Part shown: one piece after another, positions 2,647 to 64,000 of the stretch
Numbering within the stretch: the first letter of the stretch is position 1
How the letters are laid out: every line of letters begins with the position of its first letter
Source of the DNA: an uncultured Bacteroidota bacterium
GTDB lineage: Bacteria; Bacteroidota; Bacteroidia; AKYH767-A; JABDAW01
Length of the DNA: 64,000 nucleotides
Reading direction: 5' to 3'
Assembly (NCBI GenBank): GCA_903844645.1
Contig: CAIMUP010000008.1
Span: forward strand, 32,612 to 96,611
Program-made: the position numbers and the translations under genes
The notes under the pieces: generated by a model
Databases searched by the model: none
Told to the model about the DNA's origin: nothing
Seen by the model: only the letters and a program-made list of their open reading frames with translations

Positions 2647-3688
2647 TCATTCAGCCTTCTTTACCCCGAATAATTCCAGCAAAATATGTTTCGATTTGTC
2701 GGTAAGGACATAGTTCGATGGGGGCTGTTTTTTTACCAAACCATTGCGAATTAAATTAGGCAAATGTTTCGCAAAACCAGCCACCGAGAGTCCGCCAAAA
2801 CCACGCAGTTCTGCTCCGGTAGCTTTGCCGGCATTATGTAAAAGCAGCAATTCATTCGCCACTGTTCTATGCACTCCCTTCCCTGCTCTGCGTGGCAAAT
2901 GTACCCGTAAAGCAATATGCAATCTGTTGATAAAAACTCTTTCAAGAGGTATTGCTACAGGCAGCGAATGTGTATCCTCAAGACTCGCGTTAGCCATTGC
3001 TTCTTTTATTTTTGATGCATCCGAATTTCGCTCCGCAACGGCATCTTCAAAATCGGCATAAAACTTATAGAGCGAGTTCTGAACAGCATCACTATTAATA
3101 TAATGCTCCAGAGCCTTTATAAGCCCCTTCTCGAAAACAGAATACAACAAAGCACCCCCATTTCCATCAACATTTATTTGTGGCAAAGTCTCCAAAACAG
3201 ATTTTATACCAACCTTATTCTCTGTTACATCATTATTTGAATGTTTTATACCATCCTTTATTTCCGTGGTGCTACCCGACAGATTTTTTATACCATCCTT
3301 TATTTCCGTGGTACTACCCGACAGATTTTTTATACCATCCTTTATTTCCGTGGTGCTACCCGGCAGATTTTTTATACCATCCTTTATTTCTGTGGTGCCA
3401 TCAGACAGATTTTTTATACCATCCTTTATTTCCGTGGTGCTATCCGACAGATTTTTTTATACCATCCTTTATTTCCGTGGTGCTATCCGACAGATTTTTT
3501 ATACCAACCAAACTTTCTGGCACACCTTCCGTCAATGGTTTTATGCCAACCAAACTTTCTGGGAGGTCGTTATCATCATTATATAATGCCGCCTTATTCT
3601 TTAGGTATGCAATTTCATTCCGCTGATCCATCAGATGCTTTAACAGGATATGGATGATCTTTTCAGGCTCGATGTTCATTTTTTCCAT
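2647..3688 (-). pseudogene. Frameshifted repeat gene with winged-helix-like C-terminus
   Basis: Two ORFs (3440-3688 and 2647-3195) are the halves of one gene of about 347 codons. The N-terminal half starts MEKMNIEPEKII, contains a short helical segment and enters 14-residue repeats (NLSDSTTEIKDGIK). One repeat has seven A's (minus strand) at 3452-3458 where every other copy has six. Removing one base joins the halves in frame with no stop between. The C-terminal ~110 residues resemble a winged-helix module (LLLLHNAGKATGAELRGFGG followed by a basic wing), so DNA binding is possible. The 2647-3195 ORF on its own would have to start at TTG. Either a real disruption, a phase-variable tract or a base-calling error; the coordinates span the whole gene. 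Confidence 0.7.
3206..3560. repeat. 42-bp tandem array inside a coding region
   Basis: Anchors at 3206, 3248, 3290, 3332, 3374, 3416, 3459, 3501 and 3543 are spaced exactly 42 bp, except for one 43-bp step caused by the extra T in tttttt(t). Encodes 14-residue repeats in the minus-strand gene above. Central units are nearly identical, outer ones diverged. Confidence 0.9.
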
Positions 3689-3733: not shown

Positions 3734-5002
3734 TCAATTTCTGTATCGGCAACTCAACAGGGAAATATCGTCGAGAAAGGGACGCGAATTATTGAACGAT
3801 TTGAGGGTTTCGATAAGGTTGGAATGAAGCTCCTTCAAGGACTTAACATGAGTGCTTTCGACCATGAATTTCTCCAGCCCTTCGATGCCGAATTGTTGCT
3901 CTTTACTGTTCTCAATTTCGATGACGCCATCGGTATAGCAGAGCAATTTCGTCTGCGGCGTAATCTTGGTATAGCCGAGGCTCAAGAAGGGCAATTCATC
4001 GAACATGCCCAAGCCGGTAGTGCCCGTTTTAAGGAGGTGAATTCCTTTTTCATTGGATAAAATTGGCGGCGGATGACCGGCATTAATGTAGGTCAAAACA
4101 TTGGTCGCGGTATTCACCAAACAGATAAAAAAAGTGATGTGTTTTTCGCCATGCGCACTGTTCATTACGCAAGTGTTCAGCTCCTCAATCAACACCTCTA
4201 AAGTAGTAAAATGCCTGACCAACGCACGAAGGTTCGCCTGGAAATTTGACATTAATAACGCCGCTGAAACACCCTTGCCCGATACATCGGCGATGCAGAG
4301 AATATGCTCGTGTTCGTTGATCACAAAGTAGTCGTAATAATCCCCACCAATGCGGTGATGTGGCAAGTAAGTACCATGAATTTCTATCAACGGATGATCG
4401 GGAAAAGACACCGGAAAGAGCATCGTTTGCATCTTCGCCGCGACCGACATTTCCTTCTTTAATTCGGCTTGTTTGATTTGATCTTTGGCGAACTTCTTGT
4501 TCTCATTTGCTACGAGAATAATGTTGGTAATTAATTGCACGAAGGGAAGGATTTCAGTTCTGTTTTCCGAGTCGCCATGTTTTATATTTCCAATCAATAC
4601 ATACGCAAGCGGCACATCTTTATGAAACACTGGCAACACGAACGCGAAATCGTTCAGGTATCTATTGGAGGGCGAGATAGGTTGTGGGGAATCAATGCCC
4701 TTCAATATCTCGGAAATGTTGGCGGTTTTAAGATTGGGATTGGCTCCGTAGAAGAGGGAACATTTCAAGACTATATTTTCTTCCGAGAAAGAATCATTGG
4801 TGAATAAGGCGAGTTTCCCGACCTTCAATTCGTTCTTCAGAAAGTTCTCGTAGATGCTTAGCAGGTCTTCGATCTTGACATTCCTGTTGATGGATTGTGT
4901 GATGTCAAGCAGGACTTTTAATTGCAATTCCTTCAACTCCAAATCTGCAAGGATTTTGTTTAAAAGAACTTCGCCTTCTGATAATGTTTTGTTGTGTTGC
5001 AT
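3734..5002 (-). CDS. GAF-domain SpoIIE/PP2C serine phosphatase
   Basis: A cytoplasmic signalling phosphatase of the RsbU/SpoIIE type, a family that dephosphorylates anti-anti-sigma (STAS) or similar partners. Residues 1-25 are helical and ~30-190 a GAF-like sensor. After a helical linker comes the PP2C-SpoIIE domain: GGDYYDYF (~225) and IADVSGKGVSAALLMS (~240-255) hold metal-binding Asp residues, followed by NAGHPPP (~307), YTDGVIE (~357) and a C-terminal DDISLL. All the usual metal ligands appear present, so it should be active. No STAS or HPK-like anti-sigma gene is adjacent, so the partner is encoded elsewhere. Length (422 aa) is normal for the architecture. Confidence 0.88.
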   Translation of the reverse strand: MQHNKTLSEGEVLLNKILADLELKELQLKVLLDITQSINRNVKIEDLLSIYENFLKNELKVGKLALFTNDSFSEENIVLKCSLFYGANPNLKTANISEILKGIDSPQPISPSNRYLNDFAFVLPVFHKDVPLAYVLIGNIKHGDSENRTEILPFVQLITNIILVANENKKFAKDQIKQAELKKEMSVAAKMQTMLFPVSFPDHPLIEIHGTYLPHHRIGGDYYDYFVINEHEHILCIADVSGKGVSAALLMSNFQANLRALVRHFTTLEVLIEELNTCVMNSAHGEKHITFFICLVNTATNVLTYINAGHPPPILSNEKGIHLLKTGTTGLGMFDELPFLSLGYTKITPQTKLLCYTDGVIEIENSKEQQFGIEGLEKFMVESTHVKSLKELHSNLIETLKSFNNSRPFLDDISLLSCRYRN

Positions 5003-6038: not shown

Positions 6039-6437
6039 GGTTTATGGGTGGTGGGATTGGATTTGAGGGTAGAGATTTGGGATTTGACGGTGGAGAAATA
6101 GTATTCGACGGTAGAGGAATTGGATTTGGCGGTAGAGATTTGCGATTGAACGGTAGAGGAATTGGATTTGAGGGTGGAGATTTGGGATTCGGCGGTAGAG
6201 AAATGGGATTTGAAGGGATTTTTGTTCTATTCAACGGGAGACAATTGCGATTCGGGCATGTACATTTGCGATTTGACGGTTAACAAATGCGATTTGACGG
6301 TTCACTTTTCCGATTTGACGGTTCACTTTTCCGATTCGACGGTTCACTTTTCCGATTCGGCGGTTCACTTTTCCGATTTGACGGTTCACAAATGCGATTT
6401 GACGGTTCACTTTTCCGATTTGACGGTATTTTAGGTG
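6039..6437. repeat. 21-bp tandem array between divergent genes
   Basis: Eighteen or so units in strict 21-bp register (for example starts at 6060, 6249 and 6417). The left half has the unit gatttgagggtagagatttgg, the right half gatttgacggttcacttttcc, so the sequence changes while the register does not. The array sits between the -7 elements of two divergently transcribed genes. ORFs reading 7-residue repeats through it on both strands are by-products of the period being a multiple of three. Confidence 0.92.
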
Positions 6438-8803: not shown

Positions 8804-10300
8804 ATGAGAACTCTTAAATTGAAAGTTTTTTTATTCGTTTTTTGTGCGATGACCATCGCATCCATTGCTGGTACTGAACCGGCATACAGTGTTAAAATCA
8901 AGGTTGTCGGTGTGAAGGATAGCATGTGCTACCTTGCAAATTATTACGGCGACAAGCAGTACATTCACGACTCGGCGAGGTCGGATGCCAATGGCAGGTA
9001 TGTATTTGAAGGCAAGGAAAAGCTGCCTGGGGGTATCTATTTATTTGTATTGCCGACGAGGAAGTATTTCGAGGTATTGATTGACCATGACCAGTTCTTT
9101 ACTATGGAAACAGACACTGCCGACATGGTCAAGAACATGAAAATTACCGGCTCGAAGGACAACAAGTTGTTCTACGAATACCTTAACTTTGTGAGCGGCA
9201 AGGGCAAGGAGGTAGAAGGTCTGAAAACCCGAATGAATGCCTTCAAGGACATCAACAAAGATTCTTCAAAATTCTATCGCGAGAAGATATTAAAGGTGGA
9301 TACTTTGGTGGTGAATTATAAAGCCAATTACATCAAGATGAATCCTGAATCATTCTTATCGAAAGTATTCAATCTTTCTGATGAGCCGAAGATACCCGAA
9401 GCCCCTCTTTTACCGAATGGTAGAAAGGATTCGACCTTCGCTTATCATTACTACAAAGGTCATTACTTTGATAAGATTGACTTCACGGACGACCGCCTTT
9501 TGCGTACCCCTGTTTTCCATGATAAAATCTCTCGATACATGAAGGATTTGGTCTTACAAATGCCCGATTCAGTGAACAAAGAAGCCGATATGTTGGTGGA
9601 GCGTGCGAAGGTCAATAAAGACATGTTCAAATATGTGGTATGGTGGGTTACGAATAATTATGAAACCTCCAACATTATGGGCATGGATGCCGTGTTTGTA
9701 CACATGGCGAAGACCTATTATACCAAAGAATTAGCTACTTGGGTGGACTCTACGCAGCTCTTCAAAATACAAGACAGAGCCAGGACTTTAGACCCTATAT
9801 TGGTGGGCAAGCCCGCCCCTTATATGATCCTCCAAGATACCGCCGGAATGTGGCATTCATTGTACGATTTGAAGAAAAAATATACCGTCCTCGTATTCTG
9901 GGATCCTGATTGCGGTCATTGCCAAAAAGCAATTCCGAAGCTCGTGAAATGGTATGCCATCGCGAAGGATTATAACATAGAAATCTACGCCGCCAATTCT
10001 GCCGTCGAAGAAGAAAAATGGAAGAAATTTATCCGCGAAAAAGGATTGAATTGGATTAACGTAGCCGACATTAATCTCCACAACAATTTCCGTCACGAGT
10101 GGGACATTGTAACCACCCCGCAGATATATGTGCTGGATGAGAACAAAAAGATTATTGCCAAACGGCTCGACCCCGAAACCCTCGCTGACTTCATGAAAAG
10201 AAAACTTCACGAAGACGGCAAAGAGATTAATTACAACGACCTCGAATTCTTAAAGAACAAGAAAGACAAAGAAGATATTTACGCTCCTGAAAAGGAGTAA
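8804..10300 (+). CDS. Exported thioredoxin-fold protein (TlpA/ResA-like)
   Basis: A secreted or periplasmic thiol-disulfide protein. Residues 1-22 form a signal peptide (KVFLFVFCAMTIASIAG). The N-terminal ~100 residues (IKVVGVKDSMCYLANYYGDK, then YVFEGKEKLPGGIYLF) resemble the DUF4369-type beta domain found ahead of Bacteroidota thioredoxins. A helical middle region follows (~130-330). The C-terminal thioredoxin domain (~345-480) has the active-site CGHC in VLVFWDPDCGHCQKA, and the cis-Pro region TTPQIYVLD. It probably reduces or isomerises disulfides of exported proteins or takes part in cytochrome c maturation; the substrate cannot be told from context. Ends with a clear terminator. Confidence 0.85.
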   Translation: MRTLKLKVFLFVFCAMTIASIAGTEPAYSVKIKVVGVKDSMCYLANYYGDKQYIHDSARSDANGRYVFEGKEKLPGGIYLFVLPTRKYFEVLIDHDQFFTMETDTADMVKNMKITGSKDNKLFYEYLNFVSGKGKEVEGLKTRMNAFKDINKDSSKFYREKILKVDTLVVNYKANYIKMNPESFLSKVFNLSDEPKIPEAPLLPNGRKDSTFAYHYYKGHYFDKIDFTDDRLLRTPVFHDKISRYMKDLVLQMPDSVNKEADMLVERAKVNKDMFKYVVWWVTNNYETSNIMGMDAVFVHMAKTYYTKELATWVDSTQLFKIQDRARTLDPILVGKPAPYMILQDTAGMWHSLYDLKKKYTVLVFWDPDCGHCQKAIPKLVKWYAIAKDYNIEIYAANSAVEEEKWKKFIREKGLNWINVADINLHNNFRHEWDIVTTPQIYVLDENKKIIAKRLDPETLADFMKRKLHEDGKEINYNDLEFLKNKKDKEDIYAPEKE

Positions 10301-10327
10301 TCATTCGTGAATGATTCTATAAAAAGA

Positions 10328-10358
10328 AAGCCTCCCGACATTACATCGGGAGGCTTTT
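10328..10358. terminator. Shared terminator between convergent genes
   Basis: AAGCCTCCCGA-ttaca-TCGGGAGGCTTTT hairpin with T-run, placed between the stops of the thioredoxin-like gene and the convergent 10390-11160 gene; may serve both strands. Confidence 0.85.
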
Positions 10359-10389
10359 CGTTTATCAAAGAAACCTTAAAGCTCCTCTT

Positions 10390-11160
10390 TTACAACGCCA
10401 CTATTGGGATGCAATAGATCCATGCCAACGAACCATCGGGCTTGATGACGGCAAAACGAAACCAATACTTCGTCAGCGGTGTCAAGCCGGTGATCGTTAC
10501 TCTGCCTTTCTTGATGGCTTTGCAGAAGGTGTAGGTGATGCCATCGGTAGAAATTTCAAAAATGTAGGACGGATTCCTTCCTATCGCTTTCACGATTAAT
10601 TCGATCTCTCCAGTAAGCCTCCGAATCGCCTCAATAGCGGGTTTATCGGCTTTGGTACGAACTACCAAGTGCATGTTTGCTCCGACCGCGATAGAATTTG
10701 CATTCAGCGGTTTTGCATTGACCAATCCTTGTACATACGCAAGGGCACCTTCCAGATCCAATTCCACAGCATTCATCAAAGTGGTACGAGCGGCTACTGC
10801 CCCTTTCACTTCGTTTTCGACATCCAATACCGCCAGCGCAAGGTTAGCAAGATTGGTGCCATAGAGGGCAAGCTCGACCATCGGCACGGTGAACCAGCCG
10901 CCAATATTATCAATAAAAGCTTTGCGGATACCAGTCGCTTTCGCGATCCAGTCGTTGATACCATCGGGCATATCCAATGCCACGATGTTTCTCTTCGCCA
11001 TCGCGAGGAGGATAATCAGATGTCCCTGTTTCTCAAAAAGGACTTCCACTTTACGATTCATGCGAGCATTCGCATTGCGGTTTCTTCTTTTGTTTTCCCA
11101 ATACCAGGGGCATTTGCTGAACATCTCGTGTTCAAAATGCTTTACATAATTGTACTTCAT
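10390..11160 (-). CDS. Orphan protein: helical domain plus FN3-like domain
   Basis: Function unknown. No signal peptide, so probably cytoplasmic. The first ~35 residues are basic and aromatic (KCPWYWENKRRNRNANARMN). About 55-150 is helical and Ala/Leu-rich (VKGAVAARTTLMNAVELDLE). The last ~80 residues look like a fibronectin-III/Ig-type beta sandwich: IFEISTDGITYTF, then TITGLTPLTKYWFRFAVIKP. The same layout, helices then FN3-like, is seen in the orphans at 24494 and 51296, so I treat them as a diverged family; this is by eye. A 21-bp array lies 100 bp upstream of its start. No obvious TAnnTTTG element is visible. Confidence 0.7.
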   Translation of the reverse strand: MKYNYVKHFEHEMFSKCPWYWENKRRNRNANARMNRKVEVLFEKQGHLIILLAMAKRNIVALDMPDGINDWIAKATGIRKAFIDNIGGWFTVPMVELALYGTNLANLALAVLDVENEVKGAVAARTTLMNAVELDLEGALAYVQGLVNAKPLNANSIAVGANMHLVVRTKADKPAIEAIRRLTGEIELIVKAIGRNPSYIFEISTDGITYTFCKAIKKGRVTITGLTPLTKYWFRFAVIKPDGSLAWIYCIPIVAL

Positions 11161-11259: not shown

Positions 11260-11575
11260 GTACACAGACCAAGCGAGGTGCTACACACAAGTCGCGACTT
11301 GCTACACACAACTCGCGACTTGCTACACACAACTCGCGACTTGCTACACACAACTGGCGAGGTGCTACACACAACTCGCGAGGTGCTACACACAACTCGC
11401 GACTTACTACACACAACTCCCGACTTACTACACACAACTCCCGACTTACTACACACAACTCCCGACTTACTACACACAACTCCCGACTTACTACACACAA
11501 CTCGCGAGATGCTACATACAACTCGCGAGATGCTACACACAACTCGCGAGATGCTACATAAAAGAAGCCTGTACC
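11260..11575. repeat. 21-bp tandem array upstream of an orphan gene
   Basis: Fourteen or more units of ctacacacaactcgcgacttg and variants in exact 21-bp steps from 11281 to 11554. Each unit centres on a tcgcga-type palindrome or its variant. The array is on the 5' side of the minus-strand gene at 10390-11160. Four ORFs read through it and are artefacts. Confidence 0.93.
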
Positions 11576-15158: not shown

Positions 15159-17094
15159 CAAAAAATTGCCAGATAATGCCAAACTTAATTCCGAAAACAG
15201 GCATCGCATAATTCGGCACCAAATAGTAGCTCTCGGCAGGATGAAAATTATTCAACACGTTCTCGCCCCTCAAATAAATCCGCGCCGTACGGATCTTGAT
15301 ATTCAAGAAAATATCCAACAACGGATAGTCGCCAATCGCATACTTATCTTGCAGATAAAACTGCCCCGTTACCGGCATGTACGCATCGCCAAAGTAGTGA
15401 GAATGGTAGCGGAAATCCACCCCGAATTGAGTCTGTAAAGCATGATGAAAAAAAGCATGATCAATAAAAAGAGAGTTTGAAAATGTGAATTCCGGCAACC
15501 GGATTTTATCGGTATGCAATGCCTTTTGATACAGAATATTATTATCGAAATGCAGATGATGCCATTGAAAGTTTTTACTTAATTCTATTTGAGTAATCAC
15601 CACCGAATCCCGCGCCTGAACGGGCATTGAAGCCGTATCGTAATAAATATAGTTAGAGATATTGATCAACCGAAAATCCAATTTGTTGTTTCTCTTTTTC
15701 CCATTAATCTCAAAAGTAACCGCCTGAAAATTGATTGGATTAAAATGGTTGTTCCACGAATAATTATTGCCCTCATATCTATTCTGCATCAAGGTCGGCG
15801 CAACAGAATTGATGGAAAATAAAAACGCAGTCGGCACCTTCGCAGAATCCTTCGCATACTCTTTAAACAACGCGGAATAAGAACCCTTGTTAGCCCCATA
15901 AAAACAATAATTGCCCGACAATTTAAGATGTAAGAAACCCTTAAAATGTATCGCCCCACCAGCAATTCCATTCTGCAAACTGCTATCAATAATTCGTTGA
16001 TGATACCAAATTATTTCATGCGACAAATCGAACAAATACCCAAAGTACCGCAGCGAATCATCGCCCTTATTTTTATTATCCAAAGTACCCCACGAAATCT
16101 TGTTCGTCAGCTTCGAATAATACGTCGTATCAGACGTATGCGCCGAATCGGGATAGAAATTTCGATAAAAACCAGGTATCTCCAAGCTGTCCTCGAAAGT
16201 ATAAGAATTCGTTTCATAAGTGATGGAATGAGCAACGCGTTGTGTAGGCTTAAACCGTTGGATAGTGATGGTATCATTGATTTTCACCTCAGAATGAAAA
16301 CCGAAATCATAGCTCTGTTTGACATAGAAAATACGGTTGTTATACCGCGTATTCGCATTCTGCAAACTAACCAAGTTCAGGTTCTGCGCAATATCGTTTA
16401 AGCCACTATTCGTCGAGTCGTTGTTGCTTTTTAATCCGCCATTTTCCTGATTCTTCACCACATTCCAAATCCCCGTAGCAAGGGCATTGTAGCGAAGATT
16501 TTTAGAATTATACCAAGAGAAGAAATCGAAGTTCGTAACGCTAGTATTCTGATGCGGCAACGACCCATCCGACCCGATACGATTGTAGTTAAAACCAAAA
16601 TTAAACTGCTCATTCATGTTCTGCGTGTGGGTAACCTTTATATATCCCTCGCTCTTCGACCCTAACCCGAATTGCAGTTCGGTGAACGGTTTATTCGTTC
16701 GATAATATTTGATGCTGTCAAGGGAAAAGAAGAATAAATCGTAATTATGGAAACCAATATTCATCCCCAAACGATTGTTGATAGCAAAAAGATTGGGAAA
16801 CGCCGCCGTTCCGAGGTTGCCGAGGTATTTATATGAATGTTTGAAGGCGGGATTAAAAACTTCTATCATATCCAAAACAGTATCAATTTTTTGAAGTTCG
16901 GTAGCAGGAATGGTCTTTTCCAAAGAAATCTCATTAAAATACTTTACCACCGGGATTATTCTCGGAGTTTTCTTCTTTGTGGAGTCCGCAGGGATAGCAA
17001 AAGAGGCAATCGGAAACAGACAAAATATACTATATATCAGGCATTTGGCAACCTTGGCACGAATCTGAAACAGCTCCTTGTTTATCTTAATCAT
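15154..17094 (-). CDS. Putative outer-membrane porin (Bacteroidota porin family)
   Basis: 646 aa with a signal peptide (VAKCLIYSIFCLFPIASFAIP) followed by long alternating polar/hydrophobic strands with frequent Tyr, Phe and Asn, typical of an outer-membrane beta-barrel. The C-terminus ends in an aromatic residue (FGIIWQFFD). Motifs such as NKISWGTLDNKNKGDDSLRYFG and a barrel-like end with NLRGENVLNN-type sequence fit the large 'putative porin' family of Bacteroidota. Transport substrate unknown. The -7 element TATTTTTG ends six bases before the ATG, so the message should have almost no leader. It is divergent from the H1-like gene. Confidence 0.78.
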   Translation of the reverse strand: MIKINKELFQIRAKVAKCLIYSIFCLFPIASFAIPADSTKKKTPRIIPVVKYFNEISLEKTIPATELQKIDTVLDMIEVFNPAFKHSYKYLGNLGTAAFPNLFAINNRLGMNIGFHNYDLFFFSLDSIKYYRTNKPFTELQFGLGSKSEGYIKVTHTQNMNEQFNFGFNYNRIGSDGSLPHQNTSVTNFDFFSWYNSKNLRYNALATGIWNVVKNQENGGLKSNNDSTNSGLNDIAQNLNLVSLQNANTRYNNRIFYVKQSYDFGFHSEVKINDTITIQRFKPTQRVAHSITYETNSYTFEDSLEIPGFYRNFYPDSAHTSDTTYYSKLTNKISWGTLDNKNKGDDSLRYFGYLFDLSHEIIWYHQRIIDSSLQNGIAGGAIHFKGFLHLKLSGNYCFYGANKGSYSALFKEYAKDSAKVPTAFLFSINSVAPTLMQNRYEGNNYSWNNHFNPINFQAVTFEINGKKRNNKLDFRLINISNYIYYDTASMPVQARDSVVITQIELSKNFQWHHLHFDNNILYQKALHTDKIRLPEFTFSNSLFIDHAFFHHALQTQFGVDFRYHSHYFGDAYMPVTGQFYLQDKYAIGDYPLLDIFLNIKIRTARIYLRGENVLNNFHPAESYYLVPNYAMPVFGIKFGIIWQFFD

Positions 17095-20271: not shown

Positions 20272-20460
20272 CGAACTCTGTACATTTTGCCACGAAACAC
20301 GTGTTTTATGGCAAAATGTACAGAGTTCGAACCGAAGTTTACAGAGTTCGAACAGAAGTTTACAGAGTTCAAACAGAAGTTTACAGAGTTGATGAAGAAG
20401 TTTACATAGTTAATGAAGAAGTTTACATAGTTAATGAAGAAGTTTACATAGTTTATCCAT
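20272..20460. repeat. 21-bp tandem array headed by a perfect 21-bp hairpin
   Basis: Units such as acagagttcgaacagaagttt follow one another in exact 21-bp steps from 20320 to about 20455. The 5' end is a perfect inverted repeat: 20272-20292 and 20309-20329 are exact complements (21 of 21), around a loop that is itself close to palindromic (aaacacgtgttt). Ends ~70 bp before the -7 element of the next gene. Confidence 0.92.
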
Positions 20461-21958: not shown

Positions 21959-23470
<1,512 letters not shown>

Positions 23471-23501: not shown

Positions 23502-23878
23502 TGACGGCTACTATTCCGTTCAGGAGAGATGTTATTTTATTCTTTTTGAATATTATAAAATTCACCATGAATGTTATAAAATTCCCTATGGGAATTCTTT
23601 TATTCGTTGTGGGAAAGTCCCGTAGGGACAGGCTTATGGTAGTAAATGTTAATGAAAAAAGCCCATAAGTCCCGGAGGGACGACCTTTTGGTAGGTATTA
23701 TTGGAAATTAACCAAAGGGTCGTCCCTACAGGACTTAGGTAATATCCTGCGTTTCTTAGCTACCAAAAGATTGTCCCTACGGGACTTATGAACCTCCAAA
23801 AGAGGTCTAATTATGATAGAGGCAAATAGTATAAACCGGACGGTAACTAATCCGTTCAGGAGGGATGTTATTTTATTA
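23502..23878. repeat. Direct duplication flanking a GTCCC-palindrome cluster
   Basis: The ~38-bp sequence around tccgttcaggagggatgtta occurs at 23502-23541 and again at 23839-23877. Between the copies lie two 21-bp units (gaatattataaaattcaccat, gaatgttataaaattccctat) and four GTCCCnnnGGGAC palindromes at about 23617, 23669, 23721 and 23773. Two of these (taagtcccggagggac...ttttggtag and ctaccaaaag...gggactta) are long inverted copies. Resembles a dispersed REP-like insertion; no ORF. Confidence 0.65.
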
Positions 23879-24265
23879 ATCGTGGATGTTATCATAATAT
23901 CATTGAAGAAAAACATGCTCCCCAAGGTGATTTTTTATTTCCCTATGGAGATCAATCAGTTCTCCTCGGGGAAATCAGTTTTCCCCGTGAGGAAAAAGAT
24001 TTTATCCACAGTGAAAAAGGTTTTCTATGTGATGAAAAAGGTTTTCTCTTTGGGGAATTTGTTTTTCATCACAAGGAAAAATAAATTCGTTATCGGGAAG
24101 GAAGATTTCCCTACGGGGAGTGCGTTTTTTATCAAATATAATGCGAAAACCTCCCTCCTGAATCGTATAACATCCTTTATTAATAAGATAATCTCCCCTG
24201 CAAATTTTATAACATCCTTTATTAATATCATAACATCCACAAGGAATAAAATAACATTCCCCGAT
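23861..24265. repeat. Strongly diverged array in strict 21-bp register
   Basis: At least nineteen consecutive 21-bp units can be laid out with no indel, although neighbours such as tcggggaaatcagttttcccc, gtgatgaaaaaggttttctct and tttattaatatcataacatcc share little beyond a central AT-rich block and partial dyads. The 167-codon ORF at 23813-24316 merely reads through it. Confidence 0.8.
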
Positions 24266-24270
24266 ACTTC

Positions 24271-24313
24271 GCAACCTTACAGGAAGGCTGAAGGAGCCTA
24301 CCTGTCAGGTTGC
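24271..24313. repeat. CCTGTCAGG-type palindrome
   Basis: GCAACCTtACAGG ... CCTGTcAGGTTGC with an inner GGCT/AGCC pair forms a long hairpin of the family seen at 356 and 50620. It sits exactly at the end of the 21-bp array. Confidence 0.65.
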
Positions 24314-24339
24314 TGAATAACTATGAGAATTTTTATAAC

Positions 24340-24381
24340 ATTCACGGTGAATAAACCAACATTCACGGTGAATAAAATACT
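24340..24381. repeat. Two further 21-bp units
   Basis: attcacggtgaataaaccaac and attcacggtgaataaaatac, each containing the dyad ATTCACGGTGAAT, beyond the palindrome; the last part of the array before the promoter at 24420. Confidence 0.75.
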
Positions 24382-24419
24382 TGTTTTGGAGATTTGTTTA
24401 GGATGTACGGAAATTTTGT

Positions 24420-24493: not shown

Positions 24494-25186
24494 ATGAAAA
24501 GAATAATCCGCCAGATTATCATCGTACTTTTCTTGAAAGATAAGACAAATGCCCAGGTTCGTGCCTTCGGAAGGAAGACTGCTGCGCTGGCAGCGACGCA
24601 TTCTGGCGACTATCCCGCGATGGTTCCGCCAACATCCGACATGGTTACGCTTTGCGACGAGGGGGATGCGATAGCAAAGGAGAAAGCGGCGGTAAAATCG
24701 ACGCTGAAAACGCTAAATGTTATGGAAAATGACAACAGAGACAAGATTGCGAAGACACTTTCCTTGTGGGTTTTGATCGTTCAGGGGATGGTTGGGCTGA
24801 CAACCGCGTTGGTTACGCAAATAGGCTGGAAAATTAAGTCGCAAGGCACGGATAATCGCGATGAAATGAACAATTCTACGCCAGTTGTCAGCAAAGCGAA
24901 CCAAAATACCAGTAAGAAAATATCGCTTGGCTTGTTGAATTCCAAGACTCGCAAGAAAGGTAAGCCGTATGGCGTGAGGGGTTTCATTCCCTTCTTCCAG
25001 ATTGGCGGAATGAAGCCGACTTCTCACGAAACGATGACGATGGGGATGCCAACAGGCGCGATGATTTTCTCAAAAACCTTCGCTGCCGCGGATTTAGGCA
25101 AGCAGATTTTTATATGCTTCGTGTGGTATGACGGAAATGAGGCGATTGGTCCGGATAGCCCCATGTATTCTTTCACATTAATCTAA
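24494..25186 (+). CDS. Orphan protein: helical domain plus FN3-like domain
   Basis: Function unknown, 230 aa. Begins with a basic stretch (MKRIIRQIIIVLFLKDKTNAQ) that is too short and charged for a confident signal peptide. Residues ~30-125 are helical with a repeated Ala/Lys pattern (DEGDAIAKEKAAVKSTLKTL). From ~145 the sequence is beta-type, ending FICFVWYDGNEAIGPDSPMYSFTLI like the last strands of an FN3/Ig fold. The layout matches the orphans at 10390 and 51296. Preceded by the longest 21-bp array of the window. Convergent with batE, with only five bases between the stop codons. Confidence 0.7.
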   Translation: MKRIIRQIIIVLFLKDKTNAQVRAFGRKTAALAATHSGDYPAMVPPTSDMVTLCDEGDAIAKEKAAVKSTLKTLNVMENDNRDKIAKTLSLWVLIVQGMVGLTTALVTQIGWKIKSQGTDNRDEMNNSTPVVSKANQNTSKKISLGLLNSKTRKKGKPYGVRGFIPFFQIGGMKPTSHETMTMGMPTGAMIFSKTFAAADLGKQIFICFVWYDGNEAIGPDSPMYSFTLI

Positions 25187-29468: not shown

Positions 29469-29545
29469 GAAAAAAATTGAGTTTTATATGGGAAGCAGGA
29501 AAATTGTATTGAAATATAGATAGTTATAGGGTAGTGGAGTAGATT
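29469..29545 (-). other. Spacer between batB and the repeats
   Basis: The minus strand contains CAATACAATTTTCC, a poor match to TAnnTTTG; no convincing promoter for batB is visible. Confidence 0.3.
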
Positions 29546-29630
29546 TTTACTGTAGTGATATTGATGTTTACTGTAGTGATATTGACTTTTACTGTAGTGA
29601 TATTGATTTGGAGCATCGTGATATTTTTGT
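29546..29630. repeat. Short 21-bp array between batA and batB
   Basis: Three near-identical units tttactgtagtgatattgatg/ct/tt plus a diverged fourth (tggagcatcgtgatatttttg), in exact 21-bp steps, just upstream of the batB start. Confidence 0.85.
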
Positions 29631-29735
29631 GTTTGCTGAATTTTAATGTTGGGTTGGGAAAATAGGATGGTTGTCGAATCTACAAAAATGTCAGATGCGA
29701 ATCCAATGATTGATGGGCGCAATCGCGGTGAGTGG

Positions 29736-29884
29736 GCGAGGGATGGGAGGGGCTTGGTCACTGCCTGTGCGATGGCATTGTGCGGTGGCAGAGGCAGGGA
29801 CGGAACCCCCGGACAGCCCGACCCCAGCAGCGTTGGACTTTTTTGGGTGGGAGGCTGCTGGGGACGCCCCATAATCATCATTAT
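29736..29884. repeat. GC-rich structured repeat element, copy 2
   Basis: Aligns over its length with 436-578. Helix 1 here is CTGCC/GGCAG (CCGCC/GGCGG in copy 1). Helix 2 is CCCCAGCAGC (29822-29831) with GCTGCTGGGG (29854-29863), where two A-to-T changes in one arm are matched in the other. Lies inside the Bat operon between batA and batB, which suggests insertion as a unit. Confidence 0.75.
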
Positions 29885-29916
29885 ATTAGTATTATATGTT
29901 GGAATATTGATGTTCA

Positions 29917-34969: not shown

Positions 34970-35025
34970 CTTTAATATTCGGCATTGGGATTCAAAAATG
35001 ACCTTCCACACAAATAATATCATAC

Positions 35026-35312
35026 TTGGGCATGCCCCAACGAGGTAGAATTTCTGTTGGCTGGCACTTGGGCATGCCCCATCAGGGTAAAATAAGTATT
35101 GGCTGGCATTTGGGCGTGCCCAAGTAGGGTAAAATACAAATTGGGAGCTTCTGGGGCGTGCCCAAGTAGGATAAAATAAGTATTGGAAAAGACTGGGGCA
35201 TGCCCAAGTAGGATAAAATAATTGTTGGGAAGCCTTGGGGCGTGCCCATGTATCATAAAATAGTTATTTTAACTTGCTGGGGCATGCCCATGTTGGATAA
35301 AATAGTTTTTGA
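35026..35312. repeat. 42-bp tandem array upstream of an orphan gene
   Basis: Seven copies of a palindromic core GGGCATGCCC or GGGCGTGCCC. The core's central base falls at 35031, 35073, 35115, 35157, 35199, 35241 and 35283, exactly 42 bp apart. A gtaaaata(a) motif follows each core; the rest of the unit drifts. The minus ORF at 35020-35256 is an artefact. Confidence 0.93.
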
Positions 35313-38772: not shown

Positions 38773-39115
38773 CGTCGCTATCATAATAACCCGTCATCAT
38801 ATATGAAAACGTGTCATCGTGATAACAATTATTACTTTCGTGATAACGATAACCACTTTTGTTATCATGAAAACTACTTTTATGATAGCGATGGTAACAA
38901 TTACACGTTTTCATATATGACGACGAGTTATTATGATAGCGAAAGTAGTTTTTACTATAGTGAAAGTAGTTTTTACTATAACGAAAGTAGTTTTTACTAT
39001 AGCGAAAGTAGTTTTTACTATAGTGAAGGTAGTATTTATGATAGTGAAGGTAGTATTTATGATAGTGAACGTGGTGTTCACGATAGCGATTATGATATTC
39101 ACGATAGTGAGGACC
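38773..39115. repeat. 21-bp tandem array with 38-bp inverted arms
   Basis: Units gaaagtagtttttactatagt and variants run in exact 21-bp steps from 38941 to 39109; diverged units in the same register extend back to about 38810. The segments 38773-38814 and 38903-38941 are inverted copies: over 38 bases only two mismatches, including the core CATATATGAAAACGTGT. Lies ~108 bp upstream of the -7 element of the PorE-like gene. Confidence 0.9.
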
Positions 39116-43585: not shown

Positions 43586-43689
43586 GAGTCTTATTTTATA
43601 ATTAATGGGGCGAAAATACAAAATATATCTTTTCTGCAATCGGCACATTGAAAAAAGGAGGATTTTAAGCCTTGGAACATTCAAAACAC

Positions 43690-43880
43690 GAATCGGTCGA
43701 ATGATTGAGGCAAATACAGTTGTATTTGCTCGAATCACTCGAGTGATTGCCGCCAATACAGTTACTTTGTCCGAAACACTCGAATGATTGCCTCCGATTC
43801 AGTTGTATTTGCCTGAATCATTCGAGTGATTGCCTCCAATACAGTTGTATTTGCCTGAATCGAACGTTCGATTCGATAAA
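43690..43880. repeat. 42-bp array of two alternating palindromes
   Basis: Units such as aatcactcgagtgattgccgccaatacagtt recur every 42 bp. Each 42-bp unit holds two dyads 21 bp apart: AATCACTCGAGTGATT and AATACAGTTGTATT. Lies between the divergent PEGA and lipoprotein genes. The extended N-termini of both track ORFs are products of this array. Confidence 0.9.
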
Positions 43881-50847: not shown

Positions 50848-51303
50848 ATGAAATTAAAGATAATGGGCGCGGAGGTATTTGATAGTAGCATGGTGATGAA
50901 TGATACCATATATATAGGAGTGGAAAAGATGAACTTTTATATTGAAATACCCCTGAATAATGTCGTTCGAGGCAACATTTTGATGGTGTATCCTAATAGC
51001 GTAACACTATATCCTAATAGCGTAACACTATATCCTTATAGTGTAACACTATATCCTTATAGTGTAACACTATATCCTTATAGCGTTGCACTATATCCTT
51101 ATAACGTTACACTATATCCTTATAACGTTGCACTATATCCTTATAACGTTGCACTATATCCTTATAACGCTGCACTATATCCTTATAACGTTGCACTATA
51201 TCCTTATAACGTTGCACTATATCTTTTTTCAGGTAAAATATCGAAAATTAAGAGTAATTTAATAAGAAAAAGTAGTTTAATCAAACAATTAAAAGATGAG
51301 TAA
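50848..51303 (+). CDS. Doubtful ORF reading through a 21-bp array into the next gene
   Basis: 151 codons. The first ~46 (KLKIMGAEVFDSSMVMNDTI ... IPLNNVVRGNILM) are non-repetitive and protein-like. Then come twelve or so heptapeptides (YNVALYP) encoded by the array, and a basic 20-residue tail. The stop TAA overlaps the ATG of the orphan at 51296 (ATGAGTAA), as in a coupled operon, and a perfect -7 element sits four bases before its ATG. It may be a real gene that acquired the array or simply an open leader. Confidence 0.4.
   Translation: MKLKIMGAEVFDSSMVMNDTIYIGVEKMNFYIEIPLNNVVRGNILMVYPNSVTLYPNSVTLYPYSVTLYPYSVTLYPYSVALYPYNVTLYPYNVALYPYNVALYPYNAALYPYNVALYPYNVALYLFSGKISKIKSNLIRKSSLIKQLKDE
50985..51235. 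repeat. 21-bp tandem array upstream of an orphan gene
   Basis: Units actatatccttataacgttgc, with variants in the last seven bases, in exact 21-bp steps from 51006 to 51216. TTACACTATA-tcct-TATAGTGTAA dyads span neighbouring units. Ends ~60 bp before the ATG at 51296. Confidence 0.93.
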
Positions 51304-58109: not shown

Positions 58110-58170
58110 AATCCAACCCCCTCCCTATTATATAAGGAGTGGTTATTCAATAAAAATCGTGTGGCGGCGT

Positions 58171-58408
58171 GGTACGCGTTGGTGTACCGTACCAAATGTT
58201 TCCCTTTGGAATGGTACGCGTTGGTGTACCGTACCAAATGTTTCCCTTTGGAATGGTACGCGTTGGTGTACCGTACCAAATGTTTCCCTTTGGAATGGTA
58301 CGCGTTGGTGTACCGTACCAAATGTCTCCCTTTGGAATGGTACGCGTTGGTGTACTGTACCAAATGTCTCCCTTTGGAATGGTACGCGTTGGTGTACCAG
58401 AGCAAATG
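58171..58408. repeat. 42-bp tandem array upstream of an orphan gene
   Basis: Five full units and a partial sixth of ggtacgcgttggtgtaccgtacc + aaatgtttccctttggaat, starting at 58171 and every 42 bp to 58381. Units are nearly identical and each contains ggtac...gtacc dyads. Four 90-125 codon ORFs read through it on both strands; all are artefacts. Confidence 0.95.
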
Positions 58409-58562
58409 TATGATGAATTATCAATTTATAAAAGGATAATATCTTATATTTAAGATTTTGGAAAAGTAGGTTTTATAAAATCTGATACTAATTATTTGAA
58501 AATCGAGGGTTCAAATTTTGGATAAATAAAAAAGTTTATTTGGTTCATTCATTTGGATTTCC

Positions 58563-63840: not shown

Positions 63841-64000
63841 GTTCACGGTAGCAATTAGTCTGACCACAATAGCTATTGTCTTGACCACAATAGCTATTGT
63901 CTTGACCACGGTAGCTATTGTCATGACCACAATAGCTATTGGTATGAGACGGTAGCTATTGTCATGACCACAATAGCTATTGTCATGACCACAGTAGCTA
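63841..64000. repeat. 21-bp tandem array running off the right edge
   Basis: Units gaccacaatagctattgtctt with a perfect palindrome ACAATAGCTATTGT. The steps are 21 bp, except one unit of 20 (gagacggtagctattgtcat). Continues past the end of the window. On the 5' side of the minus-strand membrane protein. Confidence 0.92.

What the first reader, a model, noticed from the sequence alone, without database searches (positions are those of the whole stretch)
23861..24381. Register is conserved while sequence decays
At least nineteen adjacent 21-bp blocks can be written without a gap although many share little sequence. In the 6039 array, too, the unit changes identity half-way while the phase holds. 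If the arrays were only relics of slippage, indels should accumulate about as fast as substitutions. Selection appears to act on spacing.
Basis: seen in the sequence. Interest (0 to 1): 0.65.

Follow-up and report, generated by a model that had tools for sequence, protein, structure and literature searches.

The report
Genome-wide 21-bp-register satellite arrays
The DNA between genes in this soil bacterium is full of short repeat arrays whose sequences differ from place to place but whose unit length is almost always exactly 21 bases (two turns of the double helix), and insertions or deletions that break this spacing are about ten times rarer than in comparable DNA, so the spacing itself seems to be what is preserved or manufactured.

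Summary
In 23861-24381, lag-21 identity is 0.50 against 0.27 expected (z 10.5), and one 21-bp register runs from about 23523 to 24381, across a block of dispersed palindromes. The array is one of hundreds. In 0.88 Mb of this genome, noncoding arrays have period 21 (108), 42 (32), 63 (4) or 20 (1), with mostly unrelated units.

Phase-breaking indels per substitution are 0.009 in 21-bp arrays and 0.005 in 42-bp arrays, against 0.11 in other tandem arrays and 0.15 indels in non-array dispersed repeats. The premise (indels as fast as substitutions) is wrong, but the conclusion holds: spacing is protected or copied faithfully.

Further findings: the two halves of 42-bp units are unrelated, yet their reverse-complement dyads lie exactly 21.0 bp apart. 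Arrays almost never lie within 2 kb of each other. The trait is abundant in three congeners and rare in a sister genus and other families.

This is a dense Bacteroidetes member of a published, unexplained class: constant-length, variable-sequence 20-21-nt bacterial tandem repeats. Selection for two-turn spacing by a DNA-bound protein is favoured over a 21-nt copying ruler, but the two are not separated.

The parts
23523..23606 (.).
   Evidence: Lag-21 identity 0.50-0.64 in 42-bp windows; ATGTTAT at phase 9 modulo 21
23607..23837 (.). Interruption with dispersed GTCCC-nnn-GGGAC palindromes; the 21-bp register is the same on both sides, although periodicity inside is weak
   Evidence: related copies on other contigs
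23838..23902 (.). Forward-type 21-bp units; CCGTTCAGGAGRGATGTTATTTTATT repeats the copy lying 336 bp (16 x 21) to the left
23903..24154 (.). Diverged units of GGAAAA..TTTTCC type, still in register (12 blocks)
24155..24259 (.). Reverse-oriented units (ATAACATCC, reverse complement of the forward type), in register
   Evidence: ATAACAT all at phase 17; TRF row 24167-24257
24260..24322 (.). Exactly three unit lengths (63 bp) containing a dispersed REP-like palindrome, GCAACCTTACAGG..CCTGTCAGGTTGC (24271-24313)
   Evidence: 44-bp matches on contigs C48, C88, C129 and C131; pattern count
24323..24385 (.). Reverse-oriented units with ATTCACGGTGAAT palindromes
6051..6428 (.).
3202..3506 (.). 42-bp array with unrelated halves; one +1 phase shift inside
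11273..11558 (.). 21-bp array, 13.6 copies
20319..20453 (.). 21-bp array
29542..29625 (.). 21-bp array whose orthologous gap in a congener holds an array with a partly similar unit, there followed by inverted copies
35024..35304 (.). 42-bp array containing the palindrome ACTTGGGCATGCCCAAGT
38817..39089 (.). Two neighbouring 21-bp arrays
43689..43861 (.). 42-bp array with two different palindromes whose centres lie 21 bp apart; one -1 phase shift
50989..51223 (.). 21-bp array, 11.2 copies
58170..58409 (.). 42-bp array with reverse-complement symmetry at 21-bp spacing
63849..64000 (.). 21-bp array running off the window

Best explanation
These are constant-length, variable-sequence satellites. 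Shown: units of 21 bp (or 42 or 63) with mostly unrelated sequences sit between genes across the genome, keep their register while substitutions accumulate, may carry units in both orientations within one register, and in this genome almost never lie within 2 kb of each other. Inferred: 21 bp is two helical turns, so each unit presents the same face of the DNA. The arrays act at the DNA level as platforms on which several copies of a DNA-binding or nucleoid protein sit side by side. Selection removes indels because they rotate neighbouring sites out of line, tolerates substitutions and orientation changes, and lets unit sequences turn over by slippage and local copying.
For: Period spectrum: 108 at 21, 32 at 42, 4 at 63, 1 at 20, none elsewhere between 15 and 70; 98.3% of 817 units are exactly 21 nt. 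Phase-breaking indels per substitution are about ten-fold below non-21 arrays and non-array repeats, and the detector was calibrated by simulation. Register is kept across interruptions in the window and between several neighbouring arrays. The halves of 42-bp units are unrelated, yet their dyads are exactly 21.0 bp apart (z 5.3), so the spacing outlives sequence identity. Arrays occur in convergent, divergent and co-directional gaps, which points to DNA rather than RNA. Spacing along the chromosome is under-dispersed: 2% below 2 kb against 13-28% in simulation.
Against: No protein was identified. HU/IHF-family matches are as few as in relatives without the arrays. No motif is shared by all units; the strongest five-letter word, GGAAA, is in 21 of 147. 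W/S power at 10.5 bp is not raised, so selection for phased curvature is unlikely. Regular chromosomal spacing was not seen in the congener G002. Sequence-blind recognition of a period is hard to explain for a protein.
Confidence: 0.43

Rival explanations
1. Mutational ruler: an unknown replication, repair or recombination process duplicates DNA in steps of 21 nt, errs mainly by substitution, and creates arrays of any sequence. Constant length is then a product of the copying, not of selection for function.
For: Units are almost unrelated between loci, which a sequence-blind copier explains more easily than a binding protein. Variation inside units is clustered and includes length-preserving block changes: 97 indel events but only 35 phase changes. 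Arrays turn over between congeners.
Against: No reverse transcriptase in G000 or G002, and only one weak Y1-transposase match in G000. A ruler at birth does not predict that dyads in unrelated 42-bp halves sit exactly 21 bp apart, that old diverged stretches stay in register, or that arrays avoid each other.
Confidence: 0.32
2. Neutral slippage relics: arrays are ordinary minisatellites and the constant phase is chance or ascertainment.
For: TRF prefers regular arrays; phase shifts of 1-2 nt do occur in about a tenth of arrays.
Against: Simulated arrays with indel ratios of 0.05-0.2 are still detected and show 3-10 times more phase changes than observed. Non-21 arrays found by the same program have them. 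Neutral slippage does not give one unit length over more than 100 unrelated loci.
Confidence: 0.07
3. RNA-level function: transcribed arrays form strings of small hairpins or small RNAs.
For: 20-28% of 21-bp units are palindromic against 4-5% in shuffles. Published 52-nt arrays in Bacillus coagulans are transcribed (PMC8161180, PMC8625621).
Against: In palindromic arrays, double changes do not preserve pairing more than expected (17 against 18.2 +/- 3.5). Most units are not palindromic. No Rfam match apart from tRNAs in the window. No orientation preference relative to genes in this genome.
Confidence: 0.08
4. The arrays are coding (21 = 7 codons), so indels are removed to keep a reading frame.
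For: 21, 42 and 63 are multiples of three; units have slightly more open frames than dinucleotide shuffles (4.48 against 4.24 of 6).
Against: Unit lengths of 18 or 24 are absent while 20 and 22 occur. No codon-position pattern or excess of synonymous change. Arrays sit in convergent and divergent gaps.
Confidence: 0.02
5. The arrays are part of, or generated by, mobile REP-like or MITE-like elements.
For: 136 of 336 array flanks resemble another array flank, and a REP-like palindrome sits inside the finding.
Against: The flank families are several unrelated dispersed repeats joined by single linkage, and homology mostly does not begin at a fixed distance from the array. REP-like palindromes are only mildly enriched near arrays (7 of 13 against 36% of array-free intergenic DNA). 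Y1 transposases are not expanded.
Confidence: 0.08

Closest known systems
Constant-length, variable-sequence 20-21-nt (and 52-nt) bacterial tandem repeats of Subirana and Messeguer (Int J Mol Sci 2021, PMC8161180; J Bacteriol 2020)
   Same: One repeat length with many unrelated sequences, several families of the same length per genome, mostly noncoding, short arrays, restricted to certain taxa. The authors already proposed a protein that needs constant spacing and noted that the length equals two helical turns.
   Different: This is a soil Bacteroidetes genus with far more arrays (168 in 0.88 Mb, against 781 arrays of 20-21 nt in 176 Bacillus genomes). Unit length is strictly 21, with 42-bp units whose dyads are 21 bp apart, a measured deficit of indels against controls, and arrays that avoid each other. 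I did not find these measurements in the parts of the two accessible papers that I read.
REP/BIME elements
   Same: Short intergenic palindromic repeats; similar ones occur in this genome, including inside the finding.
   Different: REPs share a conserved sequence across loci; the 21-bp units mostly do not, and the transposase family linked to REPs is not expanded here.
Borg tandem repeats (archaeal elements; known to me from memory and cited in PMC12660748)
   Same: Many arrays with locus-specific units spread over a genome.
   Different: Borg repeat units vary in length and also lie inside genes; here length is fixed and the arrays are intergenic.
CRISPR arrays
   Same: Regular period and some palindromic units.
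   Different: No spacers, 21-bp period, and a different unit at each locus.

Membership tests
Constant-length 20-21-nt bacterial satellites (PMC8161180) | One constant repeat size across many arrays of a genome | tested here: met
   108 of 145 noncoding arrays with period 15-70 are at 21 and 36 at 42 or 63
Constant-length 20-21-nt bacterial satellites (PMC8161180) | Variable, mostly unrelated repeat sequences, with some families | tested here: met
   Nearest-neighbour identity is like shuffles for about three quarters of 187 units; the rest form families
Constant-length 20-21-nt bacterial satellites (PMC8161180) | Noncoding | tested here: met
   Most lie between predicted genes; no codon pattern in the substitutions
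Constant-length 20-21-nt bacterial satellites (PMC8161180) | Restricted to particular taxa | tested here: met
   25, 15 and 14 arrays per 100 kb in three congeners; 2.8 in a sister genus; 0.8 in other families
Constant-length 20-21-nt bacterial satellites (PMC8161180) | A short characteristic sequence present in most repeats of a species | tested here: not met
   Best five-letter word, GGAAA, in 21 of 147 units. The paper reports this for most arrays of the species it shows; I treat it as a reported tendency, not a definition.
Constant-length 20-21-nt bacterial satellites (PMC8161180) | Transcription of arrays (shown for the 52-nt class) | not testable with these tools
   No RNA data for this uncultured genome
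REP/BIME | Conserved palindromic sequence across loci | tested here: not met
REP/BIME | Associated Y1 (RAYT-type) transposase | tested here: not met
   One weak 113-aa match in G000, fewer than in most relatives
CRISPR | Identical repeats separated by unique spacers | tested here: not met
   Head-to-tail units without spacers
Phased-curvature (A-tract) DNA | Excess W/S or AA/TT periodicity at 10.5 bp | tested here: not met
   W/S and WW harmonics at 10.5 bp are slightly below shuffles; no lag-10/11 signal

The most novel reading that the evidence does not exclude
The arrays form an orientation-free lattice of 21-bp modules. What is inherited is only the two-turn spacing and the reflection-symmetric register (42-bp arrays being alternating-orientation 21-bp modules), not any sequence. 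One such lattice is kept per few kilobases as a sequence-blind chromosome-organising element.
Probability: 0.22. Interest if true: 0.85.

Novelty: new member of a known kind. Interest (0 to 1): 0.6.

Why it matters
Constant-length, variable-sequence satellites have been described as enigmatic because nothing explained why only length is conserved. This genus is an unusually dense case, which allowed a direct test: phase-breaking indels are about ten times rarer, relative to substitutions, than in matched DNA of the same genomes. The 42-bp arrays add a clue that neither simple slippage nor a sequence-specific binding site predicts: unrelated half-units whose dyads are exactly 21 bp apart. Together these make the question testable by same-species comparison, footprinting and re-spacing experiments.

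Tried and rejected
Hairpin/RNA maintenance: no compensatory pairing. Phased curvature: no 10.5-bp signal. Coding 7-residue repeats: no codon pattern, no 18- or 24-nt units. Mobile-element origin: flank families proved to be several unrelated dispersed repeats. Reverse-transcriptase copying: none in G000 or G002. HU expansion: none. Isolated two-copy duplications as a test of birth length: too few to decide. A first indel count with equal gap and mismatch costs gave 0.28 per substitution; it was discarded because it splits clustered substitutions into spurious indel pairs, and was replaced by an affine scheme calibrated by simulation. Ortholog alignment with congeners: intergenic DNA too diverged. 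The J Bacteriol 2020 paper is not held.

Full report
WHAT IS THERE. The window is part of contig C8 of a 3.84-Mb genome in 143 contigs. A congener, G002, appears to be a public soil MAG: its contig C43 and JABDAW010000043.1 have the same length (18,640 bp) and the same array coordinates. The finding lies between an IMP dehydrogenase gene (21965-23470) and an ORF without a Pfam match (24494-25186). In 23861-24381 the six best lags are all multiples of 21, and lag-21 identity is 0.496 against 0.272 +/- 0.021 in shuffles. The register starts further left, near 23523: ATGTTAT at 23529, 23571, 23865 and 23886 is always at phase 9, and its reverse complement ATAACAT at five places from 24167 to 24335 is always at phase 17. 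So forward and reversed units share one register over about 850 bp, although 23607-23837 is filled by other, dispersed palindromes and 24260-24322 (63 bp) by a palindrome also found on contigs C48, C88, C129 and C131.

HOW GENERAL IT IS. In 528 kb of this genome 133 of 166 TRF arrays have period 21 or a multiple (25 per 100 kb, 4.3% of the DNA). Two congeners have 15 and 14 per 100 kb, a sister genus 2.8, and other families 0.8. In 0.88 Mb there are 108 noncoding arrays of at least three copies at period 21, 32 at 42, 4 at 63, 1 at 20, and none at any other period between 15 and 70. Units of different loci are mostly no more alike than shuffled sequences. Half of the sampled contig left ends of this genome (13 of 26) lie in arrays, so the assembly breaks at them and true lengths are underestimated.

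Same-species genomes are not held, and congeners are too diverged between genes: in the few orthologous gaps, arrays are present or absent or carry changed units. I therefore measured indels against substitutions inside the genomes. In 109 noncoding 21-bp arrays of this genome there are 1549 substitutions and 14 phase changes (0.009, CI 0.004-0.015); 98 of 109 arrays have none, and 98.3% of 817 units are exactly 21 nt. In G002 the value is 0.019 (0.005-0.038). In 42-bp arrays it is 0.005. Controls: array-free dispersed intergenic repeats, realigned with the same costs, have 0.153 indels per substitution (0.126-0.178). Noncoding arrays with periods not divisible by 7, found by the same program, have 0.106 phase changes per substitution (0.06-0.16); heptamer-type arrays had too few events to tell. 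Simulated arrays with true ratios of 0.05-0.2 are still detected and return 0.05-0.14, so detection bias does not explain the deficit. The premise that indels equal substitutions is wrong, but the deficit is real.

MORE ANATOMY. The two 21-bp halves of 42-bp units are unrelated (5.38 of 21 matches against 5.28 in shuffles). Yet the units have reverse-complement symmetry (41% at p <= 0.05, z 11.6), and the dyad profile repeats only at a shift of 21.0 bp (z 5.3). Many 42-bp arrays can thus be read as 21-bp units alternating in orientation, or as two different palindromes 21 bp apart. Among 21-bp units 20-28% are palindromic against 4-5% in shuffles, but double changes do not preserve pairing, and in the finding itself the dyad signal is explained by column composition. 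Palindromes are therefore not maintained as hairpins. There is no 10.5-bp composition signal and no coding signal. Arrays occur in gaps of all orientations. In 549 kb of long contigs of this genome the closest two arrays are 1576 bp apart and 2% of spacings are below 2 kb, against 13-28% for random placement in gaps (arrays closer than 200 bp were merged beforehand). In G002 spacing is not more regular than random, so this rule may be species-specific.

MECHANISM. Shown: a sequence-independent 21-bp unit, phase kept while sequence changes, orientation free, intergenic. Inferred: a DNA-level platform in which neighbouring units must face the same side of the helix, with selection against indels (0.43). 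The main rival is a copying process with a 21-nt step (0.32). It explains arbitrary sequences better, but not the 21-bp dyads of unrelated halves, the register in old stretches, or the mutual avoidance of arrays. No machine was found: no reverse transcriptase in this genome or in G002, few Y1 transposases, ordinary HU content.

COMPARISON. Subirana and Messeguer described the same class (constant 20-21 or 52 nt, variable sequence, several families per genome, in scattered taxa). They suggested a protein that needs constant repeat size to polymerise on DNA, and noted that 20-21 nt is two helical turns (PMC8161180). Their search accepted only arrays with at least 60% of repeats of equal length, and their similarity score excluded repeats with indels; I found no indel-to-substitution comparison in the parts read. 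The present case meets that class's main features, except a species-wide core word, which was not found. I file it as a new, unusually dense member.

LIMITS. Gene calls are my own simple predictor. Samples cover about a quarter of this genome and a third of G002. The assemblies are metagenomic. Dispersed-repeat pairs are not independent (the CI is a bootstrap over queries). Arrays longer than the assembly could resolve are missing.

Noticed in passing
24271-24313, and L087, L088, L091, L098, L114, contigs C1 and C14: Dispersed REP-like palindrome with outer stem GCAACCTTACAGG / CCTGTCAGGTTGC and a variable inner hairpin; 13 copies by a strict pattern in 0.88 Mb, 7 of them within 300 bp of a 21-bp array.
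   Followed up: partly
about 392-611 and 29689-29911; also L083 near 10238-10481, L114 near 15244-15485, L098 near 3793-4011: GC-rich dispersed element of about 220-240 bp (70-90% identity between copies), in two cases ending within a few bases of a 21-bp array.
   Followed up: partly
contigs C1, C13 and C14 near array flanks: Another dispersed structured element, TCCTTTTATGATTGnnnCCGCnnnnGCGGTGCAACAATAAAAGGA, often not far from gene starts.
   Followed up: no
23618-23790; G002 C24, C67 and C70: Dispersed GTCCC-nnn-GGGAC palindromes shared with the congener G002; one G002 array has a 50-bp period.
   Followed up: no
L076 8011-8173 and 2594-2748 (congener G002): Arrays that switch orientation half-way: forward 21-bp units followed by their reverse complements.
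   Followed up: partly
278 consensus units of 21 and 42 bp: TAA and TGA are mildly rarer in array units than dinucleotide content predicts (0.78 and 0.86 of expectation; 0.95 and 0.98 in array-free intergenic DNA), without any codon pattern. Unexplained.
   Followed up: partly
congener G002, sampled contigs: Arrays favour divergent gene gaps (24 of 89) over convergent (8 of 91) and co-directional (33 of 388) ones; this genome shows no such preference for divergent over convergent gaps.
   Followed up: no
L134 17519-17808 (different family of the same class): An isolated 21/42-bp array in a genome otherwise poor in them.
   Followed up: no
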